From a virus, in the IMG/VR virus record IMGVR_UViG_3300030085_000236, positions 1 through 48,173 of that record: a stretch of DNA of 48,173 nucleotides, one strand, 5' to 3'. The translations under genes were made by a program, and so were the position numbers. The notes beneath the pieces are model-generated. The model was not told the DNA's origin and made no database searches. It worked only from the letters and a program-made list of their open reading frames with translations. Positions within the stretch are counted from its first letter, which is position 1, and each line of letters starts with the position of its first letter. Positions 1 through 40,715 of this stretch are shown here, piece by piece.

Positions 1-764
1 AAAATTGCAGGAAATTCTATAACTTCCCATTGGTCAGCACTTTTTTCTTGTGCCATTTTCTTAATTAATCTTCCTGTTAAATCTTTTTTAGACCAACGAG
101 TCATAACTATTACGATTGCACCTCCAGGCTGTAGCCTTTGTCGAGGTCCTGTCATAAACCATTCGTAAGCTTCGTCTAATGCTTTATCAGACATAGCGTC
201 TTGTTCCGAATGTGGGTCGTCGATAATAAACAAATCCGCACCTCTACCCGCTAAAGCACCACCTGTACCAGCAGCATAGTATTCACCGCCTTTATTAGTT
301 AACCATTTACCTGCAGAACGGCTATCTGCTTTTAATTCAGTTTCAGGAAACAAAGCTTTATATTCTTCGCTATCGATTAAATCCCTAACTTTTCTACCAA
401 AGTTAATTGCAAGGTCAGCAGTGTGAGTGGCTTCTATAATTTTTAGTTTTGGATTTTTACCTAAAAGGTAAGCAGGAAATAAATGCGATGCAAATTCAGA
501 TTTAGTATGACGCGGTGGCATATTAATTATTAAACGTTTTAATTTACCACTAGCGATATCATCAAAAGCTTTTGCCATTTTTACATGGTGGTCGCCATTT
601 ATAAATTCTTTCCAAATACCTTTAACAAAATTTAAAAAAGTAGATGTAGAAATTTCTTGATGGTCGCGTTTTTCTAATTCTTCTAAAAGAATAGTAAATT
701 CTTTAGCTTCTTGCGTACTTAGGTGTGATAAATCTAAGTTTTTTAAATTTTTTAAATCAGTCAC
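1..764 (-). CDS. terL: Terminase large subunit, N-terminal part (truncated by window edge)
   Basis: The DNA-packaging motor ATPase; 254 codons are visible and the nuclease domain lies beyond position 1. A Walker-A-like loop (PPRHTKS) sits at residues 83-89, the Walker B DLFIIDDPH at 177-185 and a coupling-type motif VMTRW at 220-224, the pattern of the GpA/Terminase_6 class. The start is GTG at 764: an in-frame stop (TAA) lies immediately upstream, so no longer start exists. The start overlaps the end of the ART-like gene by 8 bases (GTGACTGA), indicating translational coupling. TerS is about 3.6 kb upstream, separated by small genes, an unusual spacing since the two often adjoin. Confidence 0.95.
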   Translation of the reverse strand, partial: MTDLKNLKNLDLSHLSTQEAKEFTILLEELEKRDHQEISTSTFLNFVKGIWKEFINGDHHVKMAKAFDDIASGKLKRLIINMPPRHTKSEFASHLFPAYLLGKNPKLKIIEATHTADLAINFGRKVRDLIDSEEYKALFPETELKADSRSAGKWLTNKGGEYYAAGTGGALAGRGADLFIIDDPHSEQDAMSDKALDEAYEWFMTGPRQRLQPGGAIVIVMTRWSKKDLTGRLIKKMAQEKSADQWEVIEFPAI

Positions 765-1869
765 TTAATTTTAATAAATCTTCTAAAGATATTTCTTGTG
801 CGTATTTTATCGCATCATCATCTAACGATAATATTGTATCACCTTCTTTACCCATACGTGTAAAAGCTCTAGGTGGGAATTGTATCGCATCAAATCCCCT
901 ATCTCTAAAAACATCTGCAACAGGTTTACTAAACATAGATGGTGCACCTTTATCGGCTGCACCAATTAATCGGTCTGTTAGAAAAAGTGTATTTCTAGCT
1001 AACGCTGCATCATATGGGTTGCCTGATTTTGTAGCCGTTCTACCTAATTGTTCTACTAATTCATATAAATCGTCAATTACGTTATCAGGTAAATTTTTAG
1101 CATCAGCTACATTTACAAATGAAGGTTGTATTGCATATACAGATTTTTTAGGTAAATCTTTTAATATTTCTGGGACACCGATTTCTAAACCTAAATCATC
1201 GGTAACACCGTACAATGGTAATCTCGGGTCAGTTTTATCTAATACCGAATAAATACCGCCTGTAGATTGTTTAAGATTAGCTAAATCGCCATACCTGTAT
1301 TTTGGTGTTTGTAACGTTTCTATACCTGCAGGTCCACCATGATAAATAGGTTGATTAAATTTAGGCGTTAATTTAACATTTTTTAAATTACCACCTTCGT
1401 CTAAAACCGTTGATGTTATAATTCCGCTTCTTTTTTCGGATTGGTCACCAGCAGCTAATTTTTTATTAACTTCGTTTAATTGTTTTTGTACATTACTTTT
1501 AACTTGGGTATTGCCTTTTAAAATCGGGTCGGTTTCTATATCTTTTAATGTTTTTATTAACTCTTTTCTTTTAGCGATTAAAAAAGCACTCCCCATTTTT
1601 ACACCAGTTGCTGTTCCTGCAGTCATTGCATCTAAATAACCTAATGCTTCGCCTAACTTATCTCCTCTAGCTTCAGCAACTTTACCACTTACAAAAGGTA
1701 TGTACGATGCAATATCCCCTAACCTTTCACGTTCTAGCTTTTTATCTCCAACAAGTCCAGGCTCGGTAATAAATCTTTGAAAAGGTCCAAGTTTTGACAT
1801 ATCCACCCCATACTGATTAAACATTCCTGCGTAAGATTGTTTATTATCTAAGGGTACTAGTGTTGCCAT
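757..1869 (-). CDS. ADP-ribosyltransferase-like (ART/polyvalent-type) protein
   Basis: A 370-residue protein with a helical N-terminal half and a C-terminal region (about 170-365) resembling ART domains of phage polyvalent proteins. Seen: IYHGG near residue 174, a serine-containing strand GGIYSVLDK near 203, the strand-turn pattern SVYAIQPSFVNVADAKNLP, then GFDAIQFP and TILSLDDDAIKYA near the end. The H-Y/S...E-like layout and the final 'D..IKYA' strand match that fold, but I could not place a certain catalytic Glu. It starts one base into the stop of the preceding gene (TAATG) and overlaps terL by 8 bases, so it is made with the packaging genes. Possible roles are an injected host-modifying enzyme or a structural relic. 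The family call is inference. Confidence 0.5.
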   Translation of the reverse strand: MATLVPLDNKQSYAGMFNQYGVDMSKLGPFQRFITEPGLVGDKKLERERLGDIASYIPFVSGKVAEARGDKLGEALGYLDAMTAGTATGVKMGSAFLIAKRKELIKTLKDIETDPILKGNTQVKSNVQKQLNEVNKKLAAGDQSEKRSGIITSTVLDEGGNLKNVKLTPKFNQPIYHGGPAGIETLQTPKYRYGDLANLKQSTGGIYSVLDKTDPRLPLYGVTDDLGLEIGVPEILKDLPKKSVYAIQPSFVNVADAKNLPDNVIDDLYELVEQLGRTATKSGNPYDAALARNTLFLTDRLIGAADKGAPSMFSKPVADVFRDRGFDAIQFPPRAFTRMGKEGDTILSLDDDAIKYAQEISLEDLLKLSD

Positions 1870-2498
1870 TATGCTTTACCTTTTGGTGGTTTCATAGCTA
1901 ATAATTGATGATATGTTTCTGGTAAATACTTTGAACTTAATTCATATTTTTGGTTATAGTTTTGTATTTTACCTAGAAGATTTATACCTACAGGTGATAA
2001 TACGCTATTAAAAATTAAATCATCAGAAAAATTTAATTTACCACTGTGAGATTTTTCCATAATATCTCTAAAACTACTATATTCGCGTTCTAATCCTTTT
2101 ACACCTAAATTTTTATCACTGTCTGCGTCGTAACTGTCGGTAAATAAACTTGAAGCTGTTTTATTATATTTAGGTTTTCCAAATAAACTTGTTTCATAAA
2201 TATAATCAGGAGAAAGTTTTTTACGGTTTATATTTTTCAGTTCTGTTAAAAAATCACTAAAAGGAATATGGTCTTCAGCACCTACTTCGGAGTAACCGCT
2301 GTAACGATATAACCGTCTTGCTTTATCTTTTGGCGATAAATTTGCTAAATACTCTTCGTACATTTCAGGCGTATAAGTATCGTTTTCTTGTGCCTCAAGA
2401 ATATCTTGAATAGTCGGAGGGGGTTTGGGTGGTTGGTAAGCGTTTGGAGGTTTGATAAGACTATCTTGAGCTATTAATAAATCTACTATGCCAGCCAT
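1869..2498 (-). CDS. Hypothetical protein, proline-rich N terminus
   Basis: 209 residues, not recognised. The N terminus (about 15-32) is proline-rich (PPNAYQPPKPPP) and is followed by an acidic, Tyr-rich helical region with no predicted membrane segment. Its stop overlaps the start of the ART-like gene (TAATG), so the two are probably co-translated and may act together, perhaps as virion or packaging-associated proteins. Function unknown. Confidence 0.7.
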   Translation of the reverse strand: MAGIVDLLIAQDSLIKPPNAYQPPKPPPTIQDILEAQENDTYTPEMYEEYLANLSPKDKARRLYRYSGYSEVGAEDHIPFSDFLTELKNINRKKLSPDYIYETSLFGKPKYNKTASSLFTDSYDADSDKNLGVKGLEREYSSFRDIMEKSHSGKLNFSDDLIFNSVLSPVGINLLGKIQNYNQKYELSSKYLPETYHQLLAMKPPKGKA

Positions 2499-2545: not shown

Positions 2546-3013
2546 TTATTTTTCGCTATGCGATGCACCGAAATAAAAACTAATCACAGCACTTGCTAAT
2601 CCTCCTAAATAACCAAGAACTAAATTAATCAGTGCTTCACTGTTTTGTTCTGGTGGTTGTAATGTAACTAAAAATATATAACCTAAAAATCCTGATACCA
2701 TTGCGATACCAATAATACGTGCGGTCCAATCTTTACTAAACTTGGTCCGTGCGTCTTGTTTATCTTTTGTTTCAATATCAAACAAGTTAACATCAAGTTC
2801 TTTCATTTTAACTTCAAAATCTTTTTCTGCTTTTTTAATCTCTAACAACTGTTCAGGGGTAGCGTTTGCTAAAGCTTGTTCAATAGTTTTTTCATCATTG
2901 TTCACGCCTAAAACTTTAGAGATAACGCCTGTTGCCATACCGCCCAGTGGACCGTTGAGTGCCGTACCAAGTGTGGGTGCGACTGCACTAACTATATTTA
3001 ATATCTTTTTCAT
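2546..3013 (-). CDS. Holin of 3TMs family (GTA-type holin)
   Basis: 155 residues. Layout is a small Gly/Ala-rich N-terminal segment (VSAVAPTLGTALNGPLGG, with GVISKVLG after it), a charged coiled-coil middle (about 50-90) and two strong membrane helices near the C terminus (ARIIGIAMVSGFLGYIFLV and LVLGYLGGLASAVISFYFG). This matches the holin family first described in gene transfer agents and common in marine phages. I chose ATG at 3013 rather than an upstream ATG at 3082 because the family starts MKK and a good promoter ends just before it. There is no Shine-Dalgarno; a -10 box (TATACT, 3025-3020) lies six bases upstream, suggesting a leaderless mRNA. It would permeabilise the inner membrane at lysis. 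Confidence 0.8.
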   Translation of the reverse strand: MKKILNIVSAVAPTLGTALNGPLGGMATGVISKVLGVNNDEKTIEQALANATPEQLLEIKKAEKDFEVKMKELDVNLFDIETKDKQDARTKFSKDWTARIIGIAMVSGFLGYIFLVTLQPPEQNSEALINLVLGYLGGLASAVISFYFGASHSEK

Positions 3014-3019
3014 AGCAAA

Positions 3020-3661: not shown

Positions 3662-3713
3662 TAGGTTAGACAAAAAAACATATACTTTTTTTATTAGGTT
3701 ATATTACTTATAT

Positions 3714-3870
3714 AAGTTAGTTAAGTTAGTTAAGTTAGCTAATATTTGTGGACGGACGGACGGACGCACGCACGCAGAAGGGAACGGGAATAATAAAGGG
3801 GCAGGGATAGAGTAGAGGTAGAGGGATAGAGCGACGGATAGAGTAGAGCGATAGAGTAGACTAGAGTAGA
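3714..3870. repeat. Simple-repeat patch
   Basis: Consecutive low-complexity runs: TTAGTTAAG-type repeats (3714-3740), GGAC/GCAC tetramer runs (3752-3776) and AGAGTAGAG/GATAGAG-type repeats (about 3800-3870). No gene is seen between 3627 and 3917. Confidence 0.7.
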
Positions 3871-3874
3871 GCAC

Positions 3875-3900
3875 AAAAAAGGCGACCGAAGTCGCCTTTT
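3875..3900 (-). terminator. Rho-independent terminator with UUCG loop
   Basis: On the minus strand AAAAGGCGAC, loop TTCG, GTCGCCTTTTTT: a textbook terminator for the gene at 3918-4214. Confidence 0.9.
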
Positions 3901-4333: not shown

Positions 4334-4861
4334 TCAGTGTTTCTTGGTGAAGTCGCCCTCGATTATATTGTCAGTTTTCTTTGCAATTAATTCTTTGAGC
4401 CGAGTGAGTATATCGTCCTTGGTCATCAAATCAATTTTTGCAGTCAATATCTCTCTCCTATCGATGTAGAGTCCACCAGCTTTGCCTCGATGGACCTCTG
4501 CAGTGATAGCAGCGGATATCTGTCCTTGGTCCTTGGCTTCTTCTCGTAGGTCGTGTAGAGTAGAGAGGTGGTTCTCTAAGGAAACTGCTTCCTTCTCCGA
4601 GGCTTGTATTTCCAAGTCAATGAGGTAGTTTCGTACAACAGGGTTATGATTCAGTAATACGCTGCCTTGTGTTTTGGCACCCTTCCTATCCTTTGTATAG
4701 CCTGCTTTTATAGCGGCTTCAGTTGCTGTTTGTCCTTTAATATACTCTTTACAAAATAGTTTTTGTTTAGAGTTGAGTGGCTGCCACGTCTTACCATTTT
4801 GGTCTACGAAAGCTTTGCCGTCTTCGGTGGGAACTAAATGAGTATAAGTTAGCTTTTTCAT
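4334..4861 (-). CDS. terS: Terminase small subunit
   Basis: 175 residues. The central stretch LNSKQKLFCKEYIKG, then TATEAAIKAGY and VRNYL, is the N-terminal DNA-binding helix-turn-helix signature of the Terminase_2 small-subunit family; a helical oligomerisation region (EIQASEKEAVSLENHL) follows, and the basic tail (FTKKH) could contact TerL. I start at ATG 4861 (MKKLTY), preceded by GAGG, rather than an upstream ATG at 4882. It recognises packaging sites and recruits TerL. The 315 bases upstream hold AT-rich repeats rather than a gene, and TerL lies well downstream on the same strand. Confidence 0.85.
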   Translation of the reverse strand: MKKLTYTHLVPTEDGKAFVDQNGKTWQPLNSKQKLFCKEYIKGQTATEAAIKAGYTKDRKGAKTQGSVLLNHNPVVRNYLIDLEIQASEKEAVSLENHLSTLHDLREEAKDQGQISAAITAEVHRGKAGGLYIDRREILTAKIDLMTKDDILTRLKELIAKKTDNIIEGDFTKKH

Positions 4862-5033
4862 TGTAATACCTCGCTTCAGCAAATGATATTACAAATATAT
4901 TAAAAAAGATAATTTTCAAATTACTTTTCTCGTGCCCTCTAGTAATCTTACCATAGTTTCTAATAACTAATAGAAAATCTATTAGTTTTGTAGATTCAAA
5001 GAACAGAGTAACAAAGAGGGTTGTAGACTGATT

Positions 5034-19075: not shown

Positions 19076-20104
19076 TTATTCTCCTTTTTCCGCATGGTTA
19101 TTTCTACGCTCTTCTCGGGTGCGGAGCCAACTAAGACAAGCGTTTTTCCAATCTTTTGGAATTATATAATCACAGTGTGCGTATGCTTCCTCATACTTTC
19201 CTGATTTATATAAATAATAAGTAATTGCCATAGGCACTGCAATATCTCTATAACAGGGGTTTACCCAATTAGCAGCACCTATGATATCTGCAGGGTGGTA
19301 ATTAAAAAATCTATCGTGTTCCCAGTCTAAACAATCATGTTCTATAAATAAATCACTACATTGGTAATCAGGCAAAGTTTCGTAAATATTTTTAAAAGGT
19401 GTATAAACATCTATAGATAAATGTTTAACTTTATCCCATACCTCGTTAATATAGACATGAAAACTATCACTAACTTGTCGATATACGCCAACGGGTACAC
19501 CAAGTCTATGTGCAACAAGTTCTTGTAGCACTGACATATGTACCACGTTGGCACCATACGCACCCCATAGCATATCGTTAGACCTATTACAAACAGTCAT
19601 ATTTAATTTATTATCTCTTATCTTAAAATAAATATTAGTATTACAAGGCACATCTTTACTGACTCTAGCTAAATCTTTATTTGGGTCCCACATCTGTAAT
19701 ACTGCACGTCTATCGTCTGGGTTTTCTTTAAGAAGTTTTACAATCATATCTATTTGGTCTTTATGAAAATATTTTCTCCACCTATAACCATACGCACCCC
19801 ATAGAGTTTCGCCATCATCTGAAAAATTAGACATACTCGCAACATAATAAGTTAATGATTTTAAATCGTTTCTGCCTGCTAACATCCACATACTTTCTAT
19901 AAAGTGAAAGAAAGGATTTGCATCTCTTGCTTCTATAAGACATACTCTTTCTGTTGGTTTTAGGTATACAGTAGTAACAGGGTCAACACATTCTAATGTT
20001 TTACCGTTTCTACTGTCTTGTTCGATATAATTTGTTTCATCTTGAAATAAATCTACACCTCTTAAAATAGCCTCGTTTACATTTCTAACTTTTATAACTT
20101 TCAT
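19076..20104 (-). CDS. Thymidylate synthase / dUMP hydroxymethylase homologue
   Basis: 342 residues of the ThyA/dCMP-dUMP hydroxymethylase superfamily. Seen: E70 in IESMWMLAG, LWGAYGYRWR (101-110), the phosphate-binding arginines in DDRRAVLQMWDP, catalytic C154 in DVPCNTN, RSND (174-177), and a histidine/tyrosine pair in SDSFHVY. In place of the usual LGLPFN, this protein has WGAYGAN (180-186), so the residue that reads the pyrimidine in true ThyA is not conserved in register. It could make dTMP or, like phage relatives, hydroxymethyl-dUMP. Coupled (4-base overlap) to the aGPT-Pplase-like gene upstream. Confidence 0.85.
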   Translation of the reverse strand: MKVIKVRNVNEAILRGVDLFQDETNYIEQDSRNGKTLECVDPVTTVYLKPTERVCLIEARDANPFFHFIESMWMLAGRNDLKSLTYYVASMSNFSDDGETLWGAYGYRWRKYFHKDQIDMIVKLLKENPDDRRAVLQMWDPNKDLARVSKDVPCNTNIYFKIRDNKLNMTVCNRSNDMLWGAYGANVVHMSVLQELVAHRLGVPVGVYRQVSDSFHVYINEVWDKVKHLSIDVYTPFKNIYETLPDYQCSDLFIEHDCLDWEHDRFFNYHPADIIGAANWVNPCYRDIAVPMAITYYLYKSGKYEEAYAHCDYIIPKDWKNACLSWLRTREERRNNHAEKGE

Positions 20105-21000
20105 AGTTCCTCCACTAATGGTAAATTTTCGTCATAGGTATACATAGACCTTGTTCTTCCCTCGCCTTTATAAATACGAGAATACTTATCAAACTCACAT
20201 AAACCCCCCTCTATTTCTCTCATCTCATAAGGTAAATCATTTCTAAAAGTTATGTTTACTGGTAGTTTATGTAGTGCTATATCGTATAACGCCACCATTT
20301 CACTACACCAATCATGGCTACGCTGACAAAAATCTAATGGTCTACCTGTTAATCTGTTTAGTCCTCGCATAGCTCCTGGACCTGCATTAGCCCATGAATA
20401 TCTATCATTTGCTCCTTGTAATAGGTAAGTAAATCTTAAATCTGTAACAACTTCATAAGCCATGAACGGTCCCATGTATGGATATTCTCGTAATAAATTC
20501 CAACAATACTCTAAAGAACTTTCATTATTATCTCTACGTTTTACAAGCTTTTCTATCATATAATCTTTACGTTCCCACATATGGGTTATACATTCTGCTA
20601 CACCTGTAACTTTATCCATACCGTTTGGAGACTTTACTATATAAGCTCCTGTGACCCATTTATCTTGTTTAGTTATTTCTTCTATCGCTTTTTTTCTATC
20701 CCAATTTTTAAGTAAGTCGTGTTTTATCAGAGTTCTTCCAGTAGGTATCCAATTAAACCAACGAAAAATAACCGTAGCCATAAGCACGTCAGTATCTTCA
20801 CGCATAGGCTCTCGTATATGTTTTTTAAACCAACGAGTTGTTCTATCTTCTTCGCGAAAAACTTGACAGAACTTATACTGCTGAAGTATAGGGTCATCAG
20901 TCCAAGGAGGTGGGAAGTTTTGGACTTCTTTTTGTAGTCTGATGTTTTCCCTCTCTACTTGCCAATACAAGTATCTATCAAGTTCCTCTTGAATAAACAT
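20101..21000 (-). CDS. aGPT-Pplase / 5-hmdU-kinase helical-domain family protein
   Basis: 299 residues, all-alpha, of the DNA-glycosylase-related family implicated in thymine hypermodification. Recognised elements: YKFCQVFREEDRTTRW (about 42-57), FRWFNWIPTGRTL, the central MAYEVVTDLRFT, WANAGPGAMRGLNR, and the terminal GGLCEFDKYSRIY. These match what I remember of alpha-glutamyl/putrescinyl-thymine pyrophosphorylases and the helical domain of 5-hmdU DNA kinases. Such enzymes act on 5-hydroxymethyluracil in phage DNA. No P-loop kinase partner is seen in this window, so the pathway is incomplete here. It sits between a methyltransferase and the TS homologue, in one operon. Confidence 0.8.
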   Translation of the reverse strand: MFIQEELDRYLYWQVERENIRLQKEVQNFPPPWTDDPILQQYKFCQVFREEDRTTRWFKKHIREPMREDTDVLMATVIFRWFNWIPTGRTLIKHDLLKNWDRKKAIEEITKQDKWVTGAYIVKSPNGMDKVTGVAECITHMWERKDYMIEKLVKRRDNNESSLEYCWNLLREYPYMGPFMAYEVVTDLRFTYLLQGANDRYSWANAGPGAMRGLNRLTGRPLDFCQRSHDWCSEMVALYDIALHKLPVNITFRNDLPYEMREIEGGLCEFDKYSRIYKGEGRTRSMYTYDENLPLVEEL

Positions 21001-21839
21001 TACTTTTTACGCAATACCCATGAACAGTTATTCGCATATTCTGGATAGAATGTTGCAGCAACAACTCTTAAAAACTGTCTACCGTATCTATTTTCTAACA
21101 TACTAAATTGTTCTGGAGTCCATCCTAAGTTAGGAATTTTCATAGCTTTCTTTAAATTAGGCATTTGTATAAATGTTCCTGTAACAGCTTCTATAGTAAA
21201 GTTTCTTTCTAACTCATCTTTTAGTTCTTGGAAACCCCACTCATATACGTGGTCTTCAGGTAGTTTATCGTTAGAGCCGTCATGGTTAGGAGTAGATACA
21301 AAACCTAAAGCTCCAGGACGCATCACCCTAGCTACATCGTCAAGCCACGGAGCTATAAACTGTCTACCCATATGTTCAATAACTTCAGTAGACCAAAAGA
21401 AATCTATACTTTCGTCCTCTAGTTTAAATACAGGGTCGACTGTTAAGTCTTGAATTACTATCGTTGGATTAAAATTCTGGAACCACGTAGAGTCCATAAC
21501 TTTACCCCCCGCGTTAGACCAATAAGGTAATTCCATTTCACAAGCAGGGTCTATATCTGTGCCATAAAAAGAAGCTATAACATCTGTCTTTTTAATAACA
21601 TATGCTTTATATAGGTTTCTTAAAGCCCAACATTCACCGCAGCCTACTTCAAAAGTATCTAATGGTCTGCCTAATCTTTTTGCTTCTTCTATACATAGAG
21701 AAGCTATTTTATCGAAACGACTCATATGAGCTATTTCATCAGGACGCCAATTAGCTAATACACCCGCACTAGCAATATCCATCCTTGTGTTTTTACTATC
21801 GTTTTCGTTTACTAAAAGTTTCTTTCTAATAGATGACAT
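21000..21839 (-). CDS. SAM-dependent methyltransferase
   Basis: 279 residues. Class I Rossmann methyltransferase: motif I FEVGCGECWALR (62-73 region), acidic motif II GTDIDPA, motif IV-like SIDFFWSTEVIEHM and a post-IV RPGALGFVSTPN. The target cannot be read from sequence; Methyltransf_11/23-type domains act on small molecules, tRNA or sugars, and DNA base modification is possible given the neighbours. Coupled (TAATG) to the aGPT-Pplase-like gene. Confidence 0.85.
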   Translation of the reverse strand: MSSIRKKLLVNENDSKNTRMDIASAGVLANWRPDEIAHMSRFDKIASLCIEEAKRLGRPLDTFEVGCGECWALRNLYKAYVIKKTDVIASFYGTDIDPACEMELPYWSNAGGKVMDSTWFQNFNPTIVIQDLTVDPVFKLEDESIDFFWSTEVIEHMGRQFIAPWLDDVARVMRPGALGFVSTPNHDGSNDKLPEDHVYEWGFQELKDELERNFTIEAVTGTFIQMPNLKKAMKIPNLGWTPEQFSMLENRYGRQFLRVVAATFYPEYANNCSWVLRKK

Positions 21840-21842
21840 AAT

Positions 21843-22325
21843 TTACCTCCACCAACTTGGTTGTTGTCTATTTCTATTCCATTGAGCGTAATGTTTTTCA
21901 TGTATCACATAATCCCTGTACGCTTTTACAGGGTTTTTATTCTTATACTCATCAGGCATAGCTTGTGCTAAAGGTGTCATCGCATTAATAGTTATATTAG
22001 CAGGTGCTAAATATAATGCTTCCCTTAACTTTTCTACGCTAAGATGATTTTTACCGTATCGGTGAGTATATTCGTCACCTAACGCTATAAAGTGATTATA
22101 GAGCCATCTATAATTACCACTTGTTTCTCTAGCCCATATAGTGCACGGATGATTTTTATAAGCAGTTTTATATAAACCGAGCTTATCTGATTCTTCATCG
22201 CCGTCTAATACCCTATGGGCGGTACATAACATCTGTGCTGTTTCAAGCGGCATTTTAACCAACAACTTATCGGGTTGGTCTTGTGCCGACTTTACAGGAC
22301 ACTCGTTAAAATAAAATATGTTCAT
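21843..22325 (-). CDS. Conserved phage protein (KMPLETAQMLCTAHR type)
   Basis: 160 residues, helical, with KMPLETAQMLCTAHRVLDGD, ARETSGNYRWLYNHF, PLAQAMPDEYK and a C-terminal PSWW. I recall this family in many marine phages without an assigned function; the final PxWW/PxWY tail recalls T4 endonuclease V, but the catalytic Thr-2/Glu-23 layout is not evident. Start ATG 22325 follows GAAAGGAGAGATAT and promoter 22364-22392. Heads the modification/polymerase unit. Confidence 0.75.
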   Translation of the reverse strand: MNIFYFNECPVKSAQDQPDKLLVKMPLETAQMLCTAHRVLDGDEESDKLGLYKTAYKNHPCTIWARETSGNYRWLYNHFIALGDEYTHRYGKNHLSVEKLREALYLAPANITINAMTPLAQAMPDEYKNKNPVKAYRDYVIHEKHYAQWNRNRQQPSWWR

Positions 22326-22363
22326 ATATCTCTCCTTTCTTTTAAACATAAATTTACCATATA

Positions 22364-22392
22364 TTTATACTTTACATTTATAGCAAAGTAAA
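22364..22392 (-). promoter_or_regulatory. Phage promoter for unit 22325-16234
   Basis: TTTACT-N17-TATAAA, inside the replication block; gives PolA and the modification genes separate control from the primase-helicase genes. Confidence 0.75.
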
Positions 22393-22396
22393 GCAC

Positions 22397-23893
22397 TTAA
22401 ATTTGAAAACATCTAGTAGTTTTTGGTTCAATTAAATATAAATTTTCTTTAGCTCTTGTCATACCTACATAAAACACTCTATTTTCATCATCAGGATTTT
22501 TCTGATAATTTTTATACACCCTTGTAGTTATATCAGTAAGTAATACAACGTTGGTAGCCTCTCCGCCTTTTGCTGCGTGTATTGTAGATAATCGTATACG
22601 TGGTTCTTTTGTTATTTTCTCACCTCTACGTAACATCGCTCTTATATAGCTAATTTCTGCAGGTCTTAGTAAAGTAAAAACATCGTACCATTCACCTATA
22701 GGTAAATCTGGAAACTGTTCTTTAAGTGATGTCAGATTAGGCTTTGCTGACGCTTCTAATAAATCTAACTTTTTAAAATCTTTTACCTTGATATATTTAA
22801 GAATATTAGCACATTCTGTTAGTGGTAATCGGGCACCTTTTCTAAGGCGTTGCCAATTTATAACAGCTCTTACTTTGCTTTCGGGCAAACTCGTTTTACC
22901 TTTAACTTCGAAAAACCAACCTTCGTTTCTACAATACTCATCAACTTCTTCTAATAGATAATTTGTTCTCGCTAGTACAAGCCAATCACTTTCTTCCATA
23001 TTTAGTAATGTTATACTCGGCTCCCAACGTACCATTCCTTCGTCCTTTCGTGGGTGCCATACTTTATGTATACGTGAACTAACTTGCGATATACAACGTC
23101 TAGCATACTCATGAACGCTAGAAGGTATCCTATAAGATTGTTCTAATACCATAGCATTTTTACTATTCTTTATTAAATAATCTACATCTGCGCCTGCCCA
23201 CTTGTAGATAGCTTGGTCATCGTCTCCTGCTACATAAATACGTTTTGCATTATCTGCAAGTTTACGAACCACTGCCCATTGAACAGGAGATAAATCTTGT
23301 GCTTCGTCTACGAACATAACATCTAGTTTTGGTACGGTGCCTTCGTGTATAAACTTATGTAGCATATCCGTATAATCAACTAATAATTTATCTTCTTTAA
23401 ATAATTTTAATCCTCTAGCAAAACGTTCTAATTCAAACCAACCCACAGCTTCGTCCACGTCATGCCATTGGTCTTCTAACGATACGTAACGCATACGTGC
23501 TAAATTTTCTATAAACGCTAACCTATCGTCATGAGTCATAGCGAATAGATGACCGTCTTCTGATTGTGTTTTACCTGTAAGCTTTAGGTTTAGTTTTTCG
23601 TTTAGTTCATCTATATCTTGTTTACCCATAACGTTTTCTCTTGTTAATCCTAGTTGTCTAAACGCTAATGAATGTAGAGTTCTAAAGTATGGTAATTGAG
23701 TATTAGTTATTCCGAACTTAGTTATAGCTCTTTCTTTACCTTCGTTGACTGCTTTGCGAGTAAATGTAAAAAAACCTATATCGGTGGGCTCTGTTCCTGA
23801 ATCAAGTTCTTTTTCAATTAAATCTAGTAAAGTCGTCGTTTTACCTGTTCCTGGTGGTCCAAGAATAACTTGGGTATGGCTTGGTAACGTCAT
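22397..23893 (-). CDS. UvrD/Rep-like superfamily 1 helicase
   Basis: 498 residues, short for the family. Walker A GPPGTGKT (12-19), motif Ia GFFTFTRKAV, Walker B MFVDEAQDLSPVQ, motif III YVAGDDDQAIYKWAG, motif IV region LEQSYRIP and motif VI VFYVGMTRAKENLYL are all present, so it is an active 3'-5' DNA helicase in prediction. Compared with UvrD, the 1B/2B subdomains are reduced. Role: replication-fork or recombination helicase. Coupled to the AlkB-like gene by ATGA. Confidence 0.95.
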   Translation of the reverse strand: MTLPSHTQVILGPPGTGKTTTLLDLIEKELDSGTEPTDIGFFTFTRKAVNEGKERAITKFGITNTQLPYFRTLHSLAFRQLGLTRENVMGKQDIDELNEKLNLKLTGKTQSEDGHLFAMTHDDRLAFIENLARMRYVSLEDQWHDVDEAVGWFELERFARGLKLFKEDKLLVDYTDMLHKFIHEGTVPKLDVMFVDEAQDLSPVQWAVVRKLADNAKRIYVAGDDDQAIYKWAGADVDYLIKNSKNAMVLEQSYRIPSSVHEYARRCISQVSSRIHKVWHPRKDEGMVRWEPSITLLNMEESDWLVLARTNYLLEEVDEYCRNEGWFFEVKGKTSLPESKVRAVINWQRLRKGARLPLTECANILKYIKVKDFKKLDLLEASAKPNLTSLKEQFPDLPIGEWYDVFTLLRPAEISYIRAMLRRGEKITKEPRIRLSTIHAAKGGEATNVVLLTDITTRVYKNYQKNPDDENRVFYVGMTRAKENLYLIEPKTTRCFQI

Positions 23894-24477
23894 ATACCCG
23901 TCCTAAATGTAAGGTTAATTCTTTCTTCTGCACCAACGATGTCGGGTACAGCGTGAGTAGATTTCATCTGGCTATGTCCATCGAATATTAATACGTCGCC
24001 GTGTTCTAATAGATATGTATCTTCAGCAACTACAAAGTTTTCTATTTTTGTTTCTATCTCGCTTGTATCTGTTTTCTTTTTTATTTCATTTTGATAATAC
24101 CGCCAAGTAAATACTCTTGGTGCTCCAAACGATATAGAGACAACTAAGTCATCTAATGTGGGTACGGTGTCGCTGTGGTGGGGGATTCCTTTGCCATCAA
24201 CACCATAATACCCACATAGACAAAACGAAAAATCAACTCGTAAATCATAATCTCGTAATAGCATATACTCAGTTAATGTTTTAATTCTAAAGATACGGTG
24301 GTTATCTGTCCACAAGCGTCCTTTATATTCTTTACCTGCGTATGCAAAAGTATTTCCATAACCGACTGTTTTTCTGCCTAAAACTTTATGACCGTTAAAC
24401 TCACGTATGGTAGGCTCATCCCAATCAGTAATAACAGGGTTTTCTTTTTTGAAATATCCTTTTTTAAAATCTATCAT
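23890..24477 (-). CDS. AlkB-like 2-oxoglutarate/Fe(II) dioxygenase
   Basis: 195 residues, double-stranded beta-helix oxygenase. Iron ligands H101 and D103 (PHHSD) and H175 (STHAVPD); 2-oxoglutarate arginine in RINLTFR (R186/R192). CLCGYYGVDGKGIPHHSD and ISFGAPRVFTWR match the AlkB pattern 'N.Y..G.DGI..HSD...ISLG'. It probably demethylates or hydroxylates bases in DNA or RNA; next to a putative thymine-modification cluster it may instead tailor phage bases. Short ATGA overlaps on both sides place it inside the replication operon. Confidence 0.88.
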   Translation of the reverse strand: MIDFKKGYFKKENPVITDWDEPTIREFNGHKVLGRKTVGYGNTFAYAGKEYKGRLWTDNHRIFRIKTLTEYMLLRDYDLRVDFSFCLCGYYGVDGKGIPHHSDTVPTLDDLVVSISFGAPRVFTWRYYQNEIKKKTDTSEIETKIENFVVAEDTYLLEHGDVLIFDGHSQMKSTHAVPDIVGAEERINLTFRTGI

Positions 24478-25997
24478 ATTTTTGTATCGTTAAACTCTGG
24501 TAAGTCGTGGGGCTCATTTTGAGTTTCGAATTCATTAATATACCATACGTTTACACCTTTGCCTTTAATATTGAAAAAATAAGGCTCACCATCAAGCTGT
24601 TTTAATTTAGATGTTAACCTGTTTCTTTGGTATTCTTTAAAATTATTTCTATGTAAATAATCCATCAAGTCTGCTAATCTGAAATATGTTTTACCTTTAT
24701 TTGTCCATGGTTTATGTAATAATAATTCATCTCTTTCTCTAGCAGGTCGTTCTGTACAAAAAGCTTCTAATAGCTCCATAAAATGTCCTTCAGTAGAACT
24801 TTCTTTAGGAACTTCTACAATAGTAATAACATCTAGTAGCTGTTGTATAATTTGTCTCCAGACATTATCTTTTACTTTAGGTGGTATTTTATTGAGAGCG
24901 TCCATACATTTACGCTGAAACCTGTTTTGATTTAATAGGTCATCTGTTTCTAGTTCTAGTCTACCCCCCTCTACATCTAAAAACCATATCGGTGGGTCAC
25001 TATCTTGTTTTGTAAGATTACTAAATAAAGGTGTGCCACCATTGGCTCCTATACCGAACTTACGAGTTCGACATAGTGGACTATTACAGTGACTTGCTAT
25101 GGGTTGGTCATTACATCTATAAAAATAATCTTTACGTTTTAATTGTTTTACAACTGTTAGAACTTCTTGTGCACCTAAAGGTGGTTGCATATACTGTATA
25201 TTAATATCTTCTAGTCTTTTTTCCCAATCGTCTGCATACTTTTTACGCAAAAATACACCAACGTTGAACAATCCTGAATTACGTGTGCCTTTAGGAAAAC
25301 CTTGTACAACTAGATGTTGAATACATGGTGGTGCTTGGTCTAACCATTCATGTTGTTCATTCAAAGGGCTAGCCTCTAATAGTTCTAATGTTTTTGAGTT
25401 TATTTGTATTTCTTCTATACGTTCTATAAATTCTGTTGGTGTAAGTGCTTGTCCTTCTACGCCGTAAGCATACCTTGTTGAGTTTTCGCCACCAAAATAC
25501 GGCATATTAAGTGTGCTTCCTCTATCCCCTCTATCTAATAATAGTTTAGTTTGTTTAGGAAATATCTCTGCTTGACCATAGCCTATAGAAGCGGCAATCT
25601 GTCTAAGTTTTCTTTGTAGCATAGAAGCAGGGACAGGGTCTATTAAAAATATGTATATATGTGCACCGCCACTTTTACTTCTACAGATTATTAGTGGCAG
25701 ATTTTGTTTTGCTAATTTAATAGCTAGTTGTTTTAAATCTAATTGGTATTCGTCAACATCTATAGCCCCCCACACACACTCGTTATTTTCATTTATGGGG
25801 ACTATCCCTAAACTTTGTTGACCCGATAGATGTTTTGTCCATAACTCTAGGACATCATTATCGTCTAGGTTTTTAGATATGGTAATATTTTTACCACTGG
25901 CTTTGCCGTCCTCTCTAGTTTCATTTGTAGAAGTAAACGTTCCGTATGCAGAACGTAGTCCTGCATACTTCTTAGCGAACGTTTCAGCTAACGACAT
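24474..25997 (-). CDS. Archaeo-eukaryotic primase (PrimPol) with zinc element
   Basis: 507 residues. Catalytic D80-x-D82 in WGAIDVDEY, the sxH motif GGAHIYIF with H113, and the nucleotide-binding segment ending RGSTLNMPYFGG define an AEP/PrimPol domain (about 1-200). A later CxxxxxxxxHCxxxxC element (CNDQPIASHCNSPLCRTRKF, about 297-316) looks like the zinc site of helicase-primases. The C-terminal third is a helical, partly winged-helix-like region. It lays primers, and perhaps extends them, for PolA. Similar primases occur in TOTE elements; here it is a phage replication gene. Confidence 0.85.
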   Translation of the reverse strand: MSLAETFAKKYAGLRSAYGTFTSTNETREDGKASGKNITISKNLDDNDVLELWTKHLSGQQSLGIVPINENNECVWGAIDVDEYQLDLKQLAIKLAKQNLPLIICRSKSGGAHIYIFLIDPVPASMLQRKLRQIAASIGYGQAEIFPKQTKLLLDRGDRGSTLNMPYFGGENSTRYAYGVEGQALTPTEFIERIEEIQINSKTLELLEASPLNEQHEWLDQAPPCIQHLVVQGFPKGTRNSGLFNVGVFLRKKYADDWEKRLEDINIQYMQPPLGAQEVLTVVKQLKRKDYFYRCNDQPIASHCNSPLCRTRKFGIGANGGTPLFSNLTKQDSDPPIWFLDVEGGRLELETDDLLNQNRFQRKCMDALNKIPPKVKDNVWRQIIQQLLDVITIVEVPKESSTEGHFMELLEAFCTERPARERDELLLHKPWTNKGKTYFRLADLMDYLHRNNFKEYQRNRLTSKLKQLDGEPYFFNIKGKGVNVWYINEFETQNEPHDLPEFNDTKI

Positions 25998-36001: not shown

Positions 36002-37069
36002 TTAACTCATCATGAAGTTAGGAAACCCACCACCGAATCCTGGAAACATAAAATTACCTATACCACCAGGAGGCATTCCTGTTTGTGGCATTCCTGTTTG
36101 TGGTGTTCCTGTTGATGGTGTGTATGGTGTTTGTTGAAAAGGTAAAGACATATTACCTATGCCTGTATAACTTGGTGAAAAATTGTTAGGTGTATAAGCT
36201 GAGCCTGTTGCAGGTGTTGCACCTGCATAGCCATAACCACCTGCTAACGGTCCTAAAGAAGCTGTTAACGAACCAAGATTCTGTACTAATTGCATAGGTA
36301 AATTATATTGACCTGTAAAGTTTTGATACGCTAAATCCATTAATGATTGACTTCTACCTCTACCTAAACCACCTAAACCCATAGTTCGGCTTATATCTTG
36401 TCCTTGTAATGCGGGAAGGGTTTGTGCTAAATTTTGAAAATTTCTGCCTATTCCTGCTAATGCCCCCGCACCTTGTAAACCCCTACGTTGAGCTTGTTCG
36501 AAAGCATTTGATGCAAGTCGCGAAGCTTGACCGAAACCACCACTTCTTATTTTACCGACTGCTTCTGCTGCACCCCTACCTGTAGCTCTAGCTAATTCAT
36601 CTTGTGCTATACGACCTCTAGAGCCTCCGAAAGCTCCTTGACTAACAGCTCTATCACGTAAACCTATATCTGATTGTGCAAATCCTCTATTAATATCTTC
36701 TAAAGTTTGGTCTACAACTGCATCTTCAAAAGGATTATAAAATTGGTCAATCATACTTGGGTCGAACTGTCCCGTGCTACCACGAGTCATAGCACCCGCT
36801 TGGTTTAATAAATCGGCAGAAGCACCTAAATATGGTCTATAACTACCAATAGCACTATCAGATAGTTGCATAGCTAATCTTTCTCTAGGGTCAAAATCAG
36901 CTACCCTTTGTCCTGTATAGGTAAACGGTGAACTATCTTCCGTGCCTAAATTCGCAAACTGGTCTTTAAAATATTGCGTCGCATACGGGAATATAGTTTG
37001 TGATAATAAATCACCTATATACCCTGCGGGGGCTTGACTGGAATATTCTTGTTCTTCTCTACTAGCCAT
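36002..37069 (-). CDS. Virion protein (GAFGGSRGRIAQDEL type)
   Basis: 355 residues. The helical core DRAVSQGAFGGSRGRIAQDE is a motif I recall from many marine phages in front of the large ejection proteins. N- and C-termini are Gly/Pro/Ser-rich: the tail contains TGTPQTGMPQTGMPPGGIG. Probably an ejection or tail-core protein. Eight-base overlap with the upstream gene. Confidence 0.7.
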   Translation of the reverse strand: MASREEQEYSSQAPAGYIGDLLSQTIFPYATQYFKDQFANLGTEDSSPFTYTGQRVADFDPRERLAMQLSDSAIGSYRPYLGASADLLNQAGAMTRGSTGQFDPSMIDQFYNPFEDAVVDQTLEDINRGFAQSDIGLRDRAVSQGAFGGSRGRIAQDELARATGRGAAEAVGKIRSGGFGQASRLASNAFEQAQRRGLQGAGALAGIGRNFQNLAQTLPALQGQDISRTMGLGGLGRGRSQSLMDLAYQNFTGQYNLPMQLVQNLGSLTASLGPLAGGYGYAGATPATGSAYTPNNFSPSYTGIGNMSLPFQQTPYTPSTGTPQTGMPQTGMPPGGIGNFMFPGFGGGFPNFMMS

Positions 37070-37869: not shown

Positions 37870-39603
37870 TCAAAAAGTATATATTATTAAAGGTTTTTCT
37901 TTACCTTTTACTTTTATAGGTTTTACTGATTTTAGGTGATGACCACAATATTTTTCAGTTTCTTCCCCTATAAGTATGTTTACACCTGCTTCTTTTGTAG
38001 CCGATTCTAGTCTAGCAGCAGTATTTACAGCGTCTCCAATAGCACTATAATCAAATCTTGTATCACTTCCCATATTACCAATTACAGCTTCTCCTGTATT
38101 TACACCAACACCAATAGCTACGCCTATATCAGCTTTTTCTATATTTTCTTGTATTTCTTTAGCACATTCTACAGCCACTTGTTCGTGATGTGGTAAATCT
38201 AATGGTGCGTTAAATATAGCCATCATTGCATCACCAATATATTTATCTACCATACCGTTGTATTTTTTGACAGCCTCTGATTGTATCGTAAGTACTTTAT
38301 TCATTATTTTAGTAACTTCTTCAGGCTCTAATTTTTCAGATAATGCAGTAAACCCTCTAACATCAGTGAATAAAAAAGTACATCTTCTTTTTTCTCCACC
38401 TAGTTTTAATAAATCAGGGTCTTTTTGTAAACGTTTTACTTGTCGTGGGTCTAAATAATGTTCAAACTGTTTTTTAATTTGTAAACGTAATTTATATTGT
38501 TCTCTGAATCTAAGGTAAAAAGCTACGCTACCTGAGATAAACTGGCTAATTAAAGCCCACGTTACGTCTATTAAAAGACCTGCACCTATCGTATAAGCTC
38601 CGTATAAGCCCGTTAATCCCATGGTTAGTAAACCTAAGACTACGCCCCAAGTTATTCCTAAATAGCTTATAAACGCCCATACGAGCCCTACAGATACTAT
38701 AAATATTAAAAGTTCTAAAGCTAACGCATAATCAGGAACATAAGGACTATTTTGTATAAGTATCGATTCTGCTAACGCTGCTTGTATTTTATGTGGTTCA
38801 AGAAGTCCAACAGGCGTAGCTATTTGTGGCATTACACCATTAGCAGTAACACCTACAAACACAAACTTACCATTAACATCCATTTCTTGTAAATCTGTTT
38901 CTTCTGTTTTTACCCACGATACCCATTTACGACCAAAACTATCGGTTTTAACTGGTGGTATTCCTTTAACAGCTATTTCTTGTACCCCGTTATTGTTAGT
39001 TGTAATTATATAAGTACGAGCTCCTGTTAAATTTTTTAATACATGAACTCCGAAAGAAGGAGACCAACCGTCAGGCGTTTTTAATAATAGAGGTATTCTT
39101 CTAACAAGTTGGTCTATTTCTGTGGGGGCTATAGCAACTCCTTGTGCTATATCATCATATAAATAAAAGTTTTCTTTAACACCTGTAGACATGAATCCAC
39201 CGACATCAGGACCTTTAATTACTGTTCCTGTTGTTTTAGGATAATTTAAACTGCCGTCTTCAAACGTTGCTAAAACACTAGGAGCATAGCCAAGAGACCT
39301 TGCAAAATCTTCATCTCCCATAAGTCTGTCTGGTTGTGGAAAACTTATTACCCAACCAACACCTAACGCACCTTTGCCTAATATTTCTAATTGTATATCA
39401 GCTAATCTTTTTCTAGGTAAAGGATAACCGCCTTCTCGTTCTACATCTTCTTCTGTTATATTTAGAATCATGAAATTACCACTAGGCTCTTGTTCTTTTA
39501 CTAAAGCATCAAATGTTTTTAATTTAATTATTTCAGTAGGTGTGCTTTGAAACAATAAAGGTAATGCTAATAAAGGTAATAATATAAGTATAAGTTTCTT
39601 CAT
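37870..39603 (-). CDS. CHASE2-domain class III adenylate cyclase
   Basis: 577 residues. N-terminal membrane helix (1-19), a periplasmic CHASE2 sensor domain (about 20-285), three membrane helices (about 293-365), a linker, then a class III cyclase catalytic domain (406-577). Metal ligands D414 (FTDVRGFT) and D458 (KYIGDAMMA), adenine-selecting K454 with S520, and transition-state N527 and R531 (GDAVNTAARL) are all present, so it is predicted active, a Lys-Ser type IIIb cyclase making cAMP. Start overlaps the FecR gene by ATGA. Bacterial CHASE2-cyclases are often encoded beside FecR-domain proteins. A cyclase is rare in a phage genome. Confidence 0.95.
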   Translation of the reverse strand: MKKLILILLPLLALPLLFQSTPTEIIKLKTFDALVKEQEPSGNFMILNITEEDVEREGGYPLPRKRLADIQLEILGKGALGVGWVISFPQPDRLMGDEDFARSLGYAPSVLATFEDGSLNYPKTTGTVIKGPDVGGFMSTGVKENFYLYDDIAQGVAIAPTEIDQLVRRIPLLLKTPDGWSPSFGVHVLKNLTGARTYIITTNNNGVQEIAVKGIPPVKTDSFGRKWVSWVKTEETDLQEMDVNGKFVFVGVTANGVMPQIATPVGLLEPHKIQAALAESILIQNSPYVPDYALALELLIFIVSVGLVWAFISYLGITWGVVLGLLTMGLTGLYGAYTIGAGLLIDVTWALISQFISGSVAFYLRFREQYKLRLQIKKQFEHYLDPRQVKRLQKDPDLLKLGGEKRRCTFLFTDVRGFTALSEKLEPEEVTKIMNKVLTIQSEAVKKYNGMVDKYIGDAMMAIFNAPLDLPHHEQVAVECAKEIQENIEKADIGVAIGVGVNTGEAVIGNMGSDTRFDYSAIGDAVNTAARLESATKEAGVNILIGEETEKYCGHHLKSVKPIKVKGKEKPLIIYTF

Positions 39604-40715
39604 CCGCTACTTTGGTTAATCGTTATAACAGAGTCTCCTCCACCATTGATTTTTATTATATTAGATACTCCGTCTTGTATCAAAATTACTGTATAACCGT
39701 TTCCTGAATTTAAATCTAATTGCACAGATTCACTTACTTTCCTACGTAAACTTATAACCTGTCCTGTTACTATTGTGGTTATCTGTGTATCTGGGTCTTG
39801 ACCTATTAAAGTACCAGAAACATTCACACCTGTAGCTAACGCTAATTGGTCTTCCTCTTTTTCTATAGCAAGAGCGTCTAGTACATTTAATAAATCTTCA
39901 AGAAAATTTACATCAAGATAATTTATATCTAATTCTGTAAACTCTAAACTATTGTCTTCTAAAAAATCTTCTGATAAATAATCTATATCTAAATCATTAA
40001 AATCTAATAAGTTTACTGTTTTAGCTGTAGCTGTTTCTTCTTGCGTAATATTTTCTTCTTTAGGTGGCGTAACTATTAACATATTATCTATAATATCTAA
40101 AGTTAAATCTAATATAACAGGTTTACTAGGTGTGCTTTCCCAAACAGAAACAGTTGTAGCTTGATAAGGTTTATTTAATAAAACACTTCCTGTTGCTGTA
40201 ACCACCTCTATTTCGCCACTAGATAACCCAAAAGGGTCAGGCAGTAAAATAATAAGGCTACGCCCTAGTTCATCAACTGTTGCTGTAAAATCTGTGCCAC
40301 GAATAGCAATGTTTGCAGTCGGTGTTTTTAACCGTATATTTTGTTTATCTATACGATTTAAATTACCTGTAATAAACCTAGCTGTACCTAAACCAAAAGT
40401 AAGAGCCATTTTAGATTTAGACGGGTCAGGGTCGTATATGTACTCATCAATGAGTAGTTGTGAATGTTCAGTAAGTTTTACAATAGAAGCATCAAGAAAA
40501 GTAATAGCCATACGACCATTAGTCGTTATAGCTTCATCATTACTTTTTATAGCAAATTGTAAATTGGCGTCGTAGGGTTTATCTCTTACTATTTGAGCAG
40601 AGCCGTTAAGTTCAGATATATCTCCGATATCAGCAGCTTGTGCTTGTGCCTTGGTCGTTTTGAATGACACAAACAGTGCCACTATTACCGCTAGACAAAA
40701 TCTTGAGCCAGTCAT
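39600..40715 (-). CDS. FecR-domain periplasmic protein
   Basis: 371 residues. A signal peptide (MTGSRFCLAVIVALFVSF, cleavage near TKAQA) precedes a FecR domain (about 60-160) with DEAITTNGRMAITFLDASIV, LLIDEYIYDP, FGLGTARFITG and NIAIRGTDFTATVDE, the typical 'beta-solenoid' strands. The rest is acidic, Leu/Asp-rich (repeated DLDIDYLSEDFLED, DINYLDVNFLEDL) and probably calcium-binding or disordered. Its first 86 bases overlap the curlin gene in another frame. Likely senses or transmits a periplasmic signal to the coupled cyclase. Confidence 0.85.
   Translation of the reverse strand: MTGSRFCLAVIVALFVSFKTTKAQAQAADIGDISELNGSAQIVRDKPYDANLQFAIKSNDEAITTNGRMAITFLDASIVKLTEHSQLLIDEYIYDPDPSKSKMALTFGLGTARFITGNLNRIDKQNIRLKTPTANIAIRGTDFTATVDELGRSLIILLPDPFGLSSGEIEVVTATGSVLLNKPYQATTVSVWESTPSKPVILDLTLDIIDNMLIVTPPKEENITQEETATAKTVNLLDFNDLDIDYLSEDFLEDNSLEFTELDINYLDVNFLEDLLNVLDALAIEKEEDQLALATGVNVSGTLIGQDPDTQITTIVTGQVISLRRKVSESVQLDLNSGNGYTVILIQDGVSNIIKINGGGDSVITINQSSG

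What the first reader, a model, noticed from the sequence alone, without database searches (positions are those of the whole stretch)
757..1869. ART-like protein coupled to the terminase gene
Late co-expression with packaging genes suggests loading into the virion, as for T4 Alt, to modify host proteins after injection; no certain catalytic Glu.
Basis: inference. Interest (0 to 1): 0.5.

Follow-up and report, generated by a model that had tools for sequence, protein, structure and literature searches.

The report
Swappable ADP-ribosyltransferase-fold phage protein beside terminase
A marine phage gene that overlaps the start of its DNA-packaging gene makes a protein whose second half is predicted to fold like enzymes that attach ADP-ribose to other molecules; across related phages this half is swapped between different front halves, as expected of an effector weapon, but enzyme activity and injection into the host remain untested.

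Summary
The gene is real: 370 codons on the minus strand, 757-1869, starting on the stop of a 209-codon gene and overlapping the terL start by 8 nt. Its C-terminal ~200 residues are predicted to have an ADP-ribosyltransferase (ART) fold. Best solved match: the C-terminal part of a cyanophage A4 pre-ejectosome protein (Foldseek E 2.2e-4, VIA Z 8.1); the other VIA rows shown are, by name, ART-fold proteins, all below Z 8. In 32 non-redundant relatives H177 (28), Y207 (30), D327 (32), E342 (28), T345 (32) and E359 (30) are conserved. By eye, Thr345 replaces the PARP1 catalytic Glu, but acids lie nearby, as in the active phage ART AcrIF11: 'no certain catalytic Glu' is right, yet inactivity does not follow. 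N-terminal modules and ART domains recombine (front halves 89% identical with ART halves 36% identical in one pair), and some phages keep the front half without ART: an accessory, polymorphic effector. It is not T4 Alt-like by active site (H-Y, not R-S-E) and falls below the ART-PolyVal Pfam threshold. Virion loading is plausible from precedents (LIMEstone1 ORF173, A4) but untested. New variant of a known kind.

The parts
757..1869 (-). Gene of 370 codons (P0001): helical N-terminal module plus C-terminal ART-fold domain
760..1362 (-). ART-fold domain, residues 170-370 (family profile; the AF2 domain model covers 760-1386)
1420..1869 (-). N-terminal module, residues 1-150, predicted helical with low confidence; recombines with different ART domains and also occurs without one
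1339..1341 (-). codon of H177 in the first strand (YHGG), candidate NAD-binding His
   Evidence: 28 of 32 non-redundant members H, 3 gaps, 1 R
1249..1251 (-). codon of Y207 in the second strand (GGIYS)
   Evidence: 30 of 32 Y, 2 F
889..891 (-). codon of D327 (G[FY]D before strand 5 of the model)
   Evidence: 32 of 32
835..846 (-). codons of E342-G-D344-T345: conserved loop acids and the Thr that by eye takes the PARP1 Glu position
   Evidence: E342 28 of 32, D/E344 24 of 32, T345 32 of 32
793..795 (-). codon of E359 on the last strand of the model; the profile alignment to Ackermannviridae ART-PolyVal proteins pairs their Glu with this region
   Evidence: 30 of 32; alignment; strand
3..764 (-). 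terL (terminase large subunit), runs off the window; GTG start overlaps the ART gene by 8 nt
1869..2498 (-). 209-codon gene of unknown function whose stop overlaps the ATG of the ART gene
2546..3019 (-). upstream gene of phrog_1544 (unknown function)
   Evidence: E 4e-26
4337..4864 (-). terminase small subunit
   Evidence: PF03592 E 1.9e-13, phrog_51 E 5e-18

Best explanation
The gene makes an accessory, polymorphic effector: a helical N-terminal module joined to a C-terminal ART-fold domain. Shown here: a real, selected gene whose start and stop overlap its neighbours, terL included; a predicted ART fold; conserved H177 and Y207 plus acids D327, E342, D344 and E359; exchange of ART domains between N-terminal modules. 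Inferred: the domain binds NAD+ with H177 and Y207 and uses one of those acids (most likely the loop acids E342 or D344, as AcrIF11 uses D115) to mono-ADP-ribosylate a host macromolecule, perhaps part of the transcription or defence machinery; the N-terminal module targets it; and it is made with the packaging genes and loaded into the particle, to act at the start of the next infection. My odds for the steps: ART fold 0.93, enzymatically active 0.6, carried in the virion 0.5.
For: Fold: AF2 domain model of 209 residues from a 30-row alignment, mean pLDDT 83.5, pTM 0.81. Foldseek against PDB: one hit with E <= 0.001, the A4 pre-ejectosome chain 9k3a_B, identified with Anabaena phage A-4L ORF27L over residues 1-1717, whose C-terminal part reads YHGT...GTYFS...GVDAL..DGDTTLVINP. 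VIA: 9k3a_B Z 8.1, then MbcT 7.4, diphtheria toxin 7.2, AcrIF11 6.9, NatT 6.6, PARP1 about 6. BFVD: 5 of the first 12 rows are named ART or ART-PolyVal and 2 more 'large polyvalent protein'. Motifs; the profile alignment to A-4L pairs E342-G-D344-T345 with D-G-D-T (E 0.053). An active ART with its acid in a loop is known: D115A of AcrIF11Pae1, and D146A/E147A and H20A/Y46A of AcrIF11Pae2, lose function (PMC12421852 passages; Pae1 sequence checked against 6kyf). Effector-like evolution: among 57 unique members, 43 pairs have N-terminal parts at least 60% identical over at least 90 residues with ART below 40%, and 21 pairs have ART at least 60% identical with the N-terminal part unrelated (13) or only partly shared (8) (pairs are not independent). 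Delivery precedents: LIMEstone1 ORF173; A4. Iyer 2022 reads ART genes near terminase and portal genes as likely packaged (PMC9503650 passages).
Against: Thr345 is invariant (32 of 32) and by eye stands at the canonical Glu; E342 is Q, P or G in 4 of 32. My by-eye alignment is not confirmed by the profile alignment to seven ART-PolyVal proteins, which is insignificant (E 0.14) and pairs their last strand with the E359 region instead. AcrIF11Pae1 itself is described as H-F-H-D, not H-Y. Only one VIA row reaches Z 8, and the tool warns that lower Z can reflect common arrangements. The N-terminal parts tested matched only ORFs of this locus, no recognised virion protein (loci held). Five of the nearest named phages by TerL give no match to the family over the whole record (no positive control in that set). 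19 of 63 terL loci lack the domain upstream of terL, and 4 of 24 virus records searched whole had no match, so the domain is dispensable.
Confidence: 0.45

Rival explanations
1. An active ART that works in the cell that makes it, late in infection: it modifies host or defence proteins that would attack packaging, and is not carried in the particle.
For: Same fold and residues. AcrIF11 is a phage ART that modifies a host CRISPR protein in the infected cell (PMC12421852 passages). Iyer 2022 names protection of the packaging apparatus as the alternative reading. No match to a virion protein was found for the N-terminal parts.
Against: Phage ART-type proteins with physical evidence are in virions: LIMEstone1 ORF173 and the A4 chain. 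The N-terminal module is kept even without the ART, which suits a targeting part but does not prove one.
Confidence: 0.28
2. A catalytically dead ART fold used as a structural or binding domain, for instance in head assembly or genome ejection as in the A4 pre-ejectosome.
For: Thr345 in 32 of 32 members, by eye at the Glu position; the best solved match is a virion protein that also has Thr there.
Against: H177, Y207 and acids are kept in members as low as 27% identical to the window domain. The domain is swapped and lost between relatives, unlike a fixed assembly part. AcrIF11 also has Thr at the aligned position (by eye) and is active.
Confidence: 0.22
3. The likeness to ART is accidental: another alpha/beta fold with a chance YHG motif.
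For: No curated sequence family matches convincingly; all VIA rows but one lie under Z 8.
Against: A template-free model, two structure libraries and the order of motifs (HG, GGIY, GYD) agree.
Confidence: 0.05

Closest known systems
C-terminal domain of the Anabaena phage A-4L ORF27L 'tail protein' (PDB 9k3a chain B, cyanophage A4 pre-ejectosome)
   Same: Best structural match (Foldseek E 2.2e-4, VIA Z 8.1); same motif order, including G-x-D-A-L and D-x-D-T before the last strands
   Different: A 1717-residue virion protein in which the domain is near the C-terminus; here 370 residues, gene next to terL; no significant sequence match between the two
ART-PolyVal / Tox-ART-HYD2 domains of phages (PF18760)
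   Same: H in strand 1, Y in strand 2, G[FY]D before strand 5, frequent names among the top BFVD rows; occur in phages, one in a virion by mass spectrometry
   Different: Below Pfam detection; by eye, Thr where the Ackermannviridae members have Glu; not in a large multi-domain polyvalent protein
AcrIF11 (6kyf), phage ART that blocks type I-F CRISPR
   Same: VIA Z 6.9; HG motif; functional acid in a loop before the last strand, Thr on that strand (by eye)
   Different: 132 residues, no significant sequence similarity, key residues given as H-F-H-D, no N-terminal module
T4 Alt (R-S-E clade)
   Same: Proposed role: phage ART made late and delivered
   Different: H-Y class residues instead of R-S-E; delivery not shown
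MbcT / RES toxins
   Same: VIA rank 2 (Z 7.4); one of 30 members hits PF08808 at E 0.078
   Different: His where RES proteins have Arg (recalled); the neighbour gene has no antitoxin-like match

Membership tests
ADP-ribosyltransferase superfamily | split beta-sheet ART fold | tested here: met
   AF2 model and structure searches; predicted, not solved
ADP-ribosyltransferase superfamily | NAD-dependent transfer or hydrolysis | not testable with these tools
   needs an assay
ART-PolyVal (PF18760) | score above the curated cut-off | tested here: not met
   no match in the window record at E <= 10; 1 of 30 members, best E 0.12
ART-PolyVal / Tox-ART-HYD2 | H in strand 1 and Y in strand 2 | tested here: met
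   H177 28 of 32 (3 gaps, 1 R), Y207 30 of 32; strands
ART-PolyVal / Tox-ART-HYD2 | D in strand 5 | tested here: inconclusive
   D327 is invariant just before strand 5 of the model, but how the paper counts strands could not be checked
ART-PolyVal / Tox-ART-HYD2 | part of a large polyvalent protein | tested here: not met
   370 residues, one recognisable domain; longest member in the 62 is 615 residues
T4 Alt / VIP2 (R-S-E clade) | R, S, E active site | tested here: not met
   H177 and Y207 at the first two places; an E-x-[DE] pair precedes T345
T4 Alt / VIP2 (R-S-E clade) | packaged in the head and injected | not testable with these tools
   needs virion proteomics
AcrIF11 | acid in the loop before the last strand required for activity | tested here: inconclusive
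   E342 and D344 are in such a loop by sequence and model; residue-level superposition not available
Polymorphic effector (swappable C-terminal domain on shared N-terminal modules) | close N-terminal parts with divergent C-terminal domains, and the reverse | tested here: met
   43 and 21 pairs among 57 unique members

The most novel reading that the evidence does not exclude
The gene before terL in HTVC023P-related marine phages is a polymorphic effector slot: recombining N-terminal modules carry fast-diversifying ART warheads of an H-Y class in which an invariant Thr replaces the catalytic Glu and a loop E-x-[DE] motif supplies the acid; a related domain sits in the ejection apparatus of cyanophage A4, so virion-delivered ADP-ribosylation would be common in short-tailed marine phages, where ARTs were thought rare (3% of siphoviruses and podoviruses in PMC9503650 passages).
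Probability: 0.3. Interest if true: 0.65.

Novelty: new variant of a known kind. Interest (0 to 1): 0.45.

Why it matters
HTVC023P-type phages are called widespread among the abundant viruses of SAR11 bacteria (PMC9599517 abstract and passages), and that paper's main text does not mention ADP-ribosylation ('ribosyl' 0 times). If this family is active and delivered, these phages would reprogramme or disarm their hosts by ADP-ribosylation from the first minutes, and the conserved Thr with nearby acids would define an ART variant that sequence models miss. The locus also gives a simple marker (the ORF before terL) for finding more such effectors.

Tried and rejected
Sequence searches that led nowhere: P0001 and two relatives against 50,697 phage records by tblastn (no match); PDB by sequence (E 0.19 or worse, unrelated names); Pfam, PHROGs, NCBIfam, PADLOC (nothing convincing). 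In the Pfam scan of 30 members the ART-type hits (RES E 0.078, ART-PolyVal E 0.12, one member each) are no better than unrelated ones (MgtE_N E 0.0017, DUF2977 E 0.031). Foldseek PDB rows other than rank 1 have E >= 0.39 and mix PARP entries (ranks 4, 8, 10) with unrelated proteins. Profile alignments of the family to single ART sequences (E 0.024-0.069) and to seven ART-PolyVal proteins (E 0.14) are not significant; the last matches the HG, GIY and G[FY]D motifs in order but places the final strand against E359 rather than T345, against my by-eye alignment. Of those seven, EspM4VN looks frame-shifted at its C-terminus and SecTim467 was poorly aligned. PF18760 also gave sub-threshold matches in A-4L (E 0.0035) and in Synechococcus phage MinM2 (E 0.0098, in a 2804-residue frame), the latter not followed up.

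Rejected: T4 Alt kinship (active-site class differs); RES toxin (His instead of Arg, recalled); fusion to virion proteins as direct proof of packaging: six N-terminal stretches (five from relatives and the window's) matched only ART-bearing ORFs and ART-less ORFs that lie just before terL (one search gave the first five with its listing cut). The full-length model is poor in the N-terminal half, so nothing is claimed about its fold, and it was not used for a structure search. Promoter scan: 17 sigma-70-like sites against 15.9 expected, so no evidence on late expression; terminator-like sites 8 against 3.5, 7 of them on the + strand. The output was cut; later steps used its files.

Full report
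What is there. The stretch 757-1869 is one open reading frame of 370 codons on the minus strand. It begins on the stop codon of a 209-codon gene (TAATG) and ends 8 nt inside the terminase large subunit gene, which starts with GTG and runs off the window. Upstream lie a gene of phrog_1544 (unknown function) and, further, the terminase small subunit. Among five sequences (10 pairs) dN/dS is below 1 throughout, 0.11-0.47 in the C-terminal part and 0.23-0.69 in the N-terminal part.

How the family was found. The protein itself finds only five loci in IMG/VR and none among 50,697 named phage records. I used synteny: the terL gene found 465 loci, of which the best 80 were kept. ORFs upstream of terL were collected and grouped by iterative profile search (62 ORFs in the final round). 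A profile of the C-terminal domain then gave, over the loci held at that time, 124 hits; 122 were near full length, 56 of them unique and 32 left at less than 90% identity. Some loci are overlapping pieces of the same contig, which the dereplication removes.

Fold. AF2 on a 30-row domain alignment gave mean pLDDT 83.5 and pTM 0.81. Foldseek against the PDB has a single hit with E <= 0.001: chain B of 9k3a, the cyanophage A4 pre-ejectosome (E 2.2e-4, probability 0.99). A sequence search pairs this chain with Anabaena phage A-4L ORF27L over residues 1-1717 of both. VIA-align gives the same chain first (Z 8.1, 144 residues, rmsd 5.0), then MbcT, diphtheria toxin, AcrIF11, NatT and PARP entries (Z 7.4 to 5.8); judging by their names, the 50 rows shown are ART-fold proteins or the A4 chain. 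The tool warns that Z under 8 is common by chance, and only one row reaches 8, so the weight lies in the agreement of the rows, in the viral library (five of the first twelve rows named ART or ART-PolyVal, two more 'large polyvalent') and in the motifs. I put the ART fold at 0.93.

Active site. In the 32 non-redundant members: H177 in 28 (3 gaps, 1 R), Y207 in 30 (2 F), D214 and R216 in 32, D327 in 32, P332 in 32, E342 in 28 (2 Q, 1 P, 1 G), D or E at 344 in 24, T345 in 32, E359 in 30. By eye the strand T345-I-L-S-L-D lines up with PARP1 E988-Y-I-V-Y-D (PARP1 sequence recalled), so Thr would take the place of the Glu. A weak profile alignment (E 0.053) pairs E342-G-D344-T345 with D-G-D-T of A-4L ORF27L. 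In the Ackermannviridae ART-PolyVal proteins (Mutine, LIMEstone1) a Glu begins the strand [MIV]V[VL][FY]; by eye it meets T345, but the profile alignment, itself insignificant (E 0.14), sets it against the E359 region. In AcrIF11Pae1 the place is a Thr too (by eye), and D115, needed for function, lies five residues earlier in the loop; that protein is described as H-F-H-D (passages of PMC12421852; residue number printed before it failed). The polyvalent ARTs are described as H-Y-D, with the D in strand 5 (PMC5512222 section 9). The window protein thus keeps H and Y and has four candidate acids (D327, E342, D344, E359). Which one is catalytic, if any, cannot be settled without coordinates.

An exchangeable domain. 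Of the 80 terL loci, 63 have at least 1 kb upstream. In 32 the ART ORF ends within 100 nt of the terL match (13 with the 8-nt overlap, 19 with 7-21 nt measured to residue 4 of the query), in 12 it ends 140-1467 nt upstream, and 19 have none; 9 of these 19 carry a protein with the N-terminal module but no ART. Of 24 virus records searched whole, 20 have one match each and 4 have none, three of these four 59-65 kb long (records may be incomplete). Among 57 unique members with at least 120 residues before the domain, 43 pairs have N-terminal parts at least 60% identical over at least 90 residues while their ART domains are below 40% identical (among the 20 pairs printed, up to 89% over 179 residues with ART at 36%); 21 pairs show the reverse, with ART at least 60% identical and the N-terminal part unrelated (13) or only partly shared (8). 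The pairs are not independent and no tree-based test was run, but exchange of whole domains is the plain reading. The pattern is that of polymorphic effectors and speaks against a fixed assembly role. The N-terminal stretches tested (six) matched no ORF outside this locus type.

Which phage. The nearest TerL among named phages are 023Pt_psg01, DSL-LC04, HTVC027P and HTVC023P at 51-59% identity. None of these, nor MinM2, gives a match to the family profile over the whole record (no positive control in that set; fetched flanks). MinM2 has a sub-threshold ART-PolyVal match in a large frame. The window also carries a curli cluster with FecR and adenylate cyclase and a thymidylate synthase beside a hypermodification-type gene, of the kinds described for HTVC023P-type pelagiphages (passages of PMC9599517). 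I take the window for a fragment of a relative of that group; the host is inferred, not shown.

Delivery. There is no direct evidence. For it: the position, read as packaging by Iyer 2022 (PMC9503650 passages); the A4 pre-ejectosome protein with the same predicted fold; and LIMEstone1 ORF173, 62.5% identical to the Mutine ART-PolyVal protein, marked 'confirmed structural protein' in its record on the strength of one unique peptide, 11.84% coverage (PMC3296691 Table 2 in passages). Against it: no link to a recognised virion protein was found, and AcrIF11 shows that a phage ART can act inside the infected cell. I give delivery 0.5.

Verdict. The finding is sound as an observation and its refutation test was passed. 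The comparison with T4 Alt is one of possible role, not of kinship. I rate it a new variant of a known kind, interest 0.45. Literature searched for a prior report: 'pelagiphage' with 'ADP-ribosyl' gave two papers; in the one I opened (PMC9038755, passages) the hits concern a phage ADP-ribosyl hydrolase, the other was seen in the listing only; 'cyanophage A4' with 'ejectosome' gave none; 'ejection protein', 'ADP-ribosyl', 'podovirus' (two of three) gave 78, of which ten were listed.

Noticed in passing
window 37870-42569 (-): Curli (type VIII secretion) cluster: CsgF, CsgG, a repeat protein (by eye; no Pfam hit), FecR and a CHASE2-adenylate cyclase; this arrangement is already described in HTVC023P-type pelagiphages (PMC9599517 passages).
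   Followed up: partly
window 19076-24477 (-): Thymidylate synthase next to a 5-hmdU DNA kinase helical-domain protein, a methyltransferase and a 2OG-Fe(II) oxygenase: a DNA hypermodification set, of the type noted for these phages.
   Followed up: partly
window 24474-25997 (-): Protein with a TOTE-type archaeo-eukaryotic primase domain (PF22548 E 3.5e-13), perhaps the replication primase.
   Followed up: no
window 36005-37069 (-): DNA ejection protein family (phrog_4287 E 1.9e-14): the phage's likely ejection apparatus is encoded far from the ART gene.
   Followed up: no
L178 3001-3456 (Dickeya phage LIMEstone1 ORF173): A mass-spectrometry-confirmed 'unknown structural protein' (one peptide) is a homologue of an ART-PolyVal protein, so a stand-alone phage ART-type protein is a virion component.
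   Followed up: yes
L159 20116-25269 (Anabaena phage A-4L ORF27L): Virion (pre-ejectosome) protein annotated 'tail protein' whose C-terminal region has YHG and GTYF motifs and is the best structural match of the window domain; Pfam ART-PolyVal only below cut-off.
   Followed up: yes
L165 (Synechococcus phage MinM2, record 20092-20169): Sub-threshold ART-PolyVal match (E 0.0098) inside a 2804-residue open frame.
   Followed up: no
family domain, residues D214, R216 and P332 of P0001: Invariant residues (32 of 32 each) outside the usual ART motifs, possibly target or loop determinants; unexplained.
   Followed up: no
window 3700-3880: Short-period repeats (GGAC and GCAC units, then tagag-type runs) beside the small genes upstream of the ART locus (seen by eye).
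   Followed up: no
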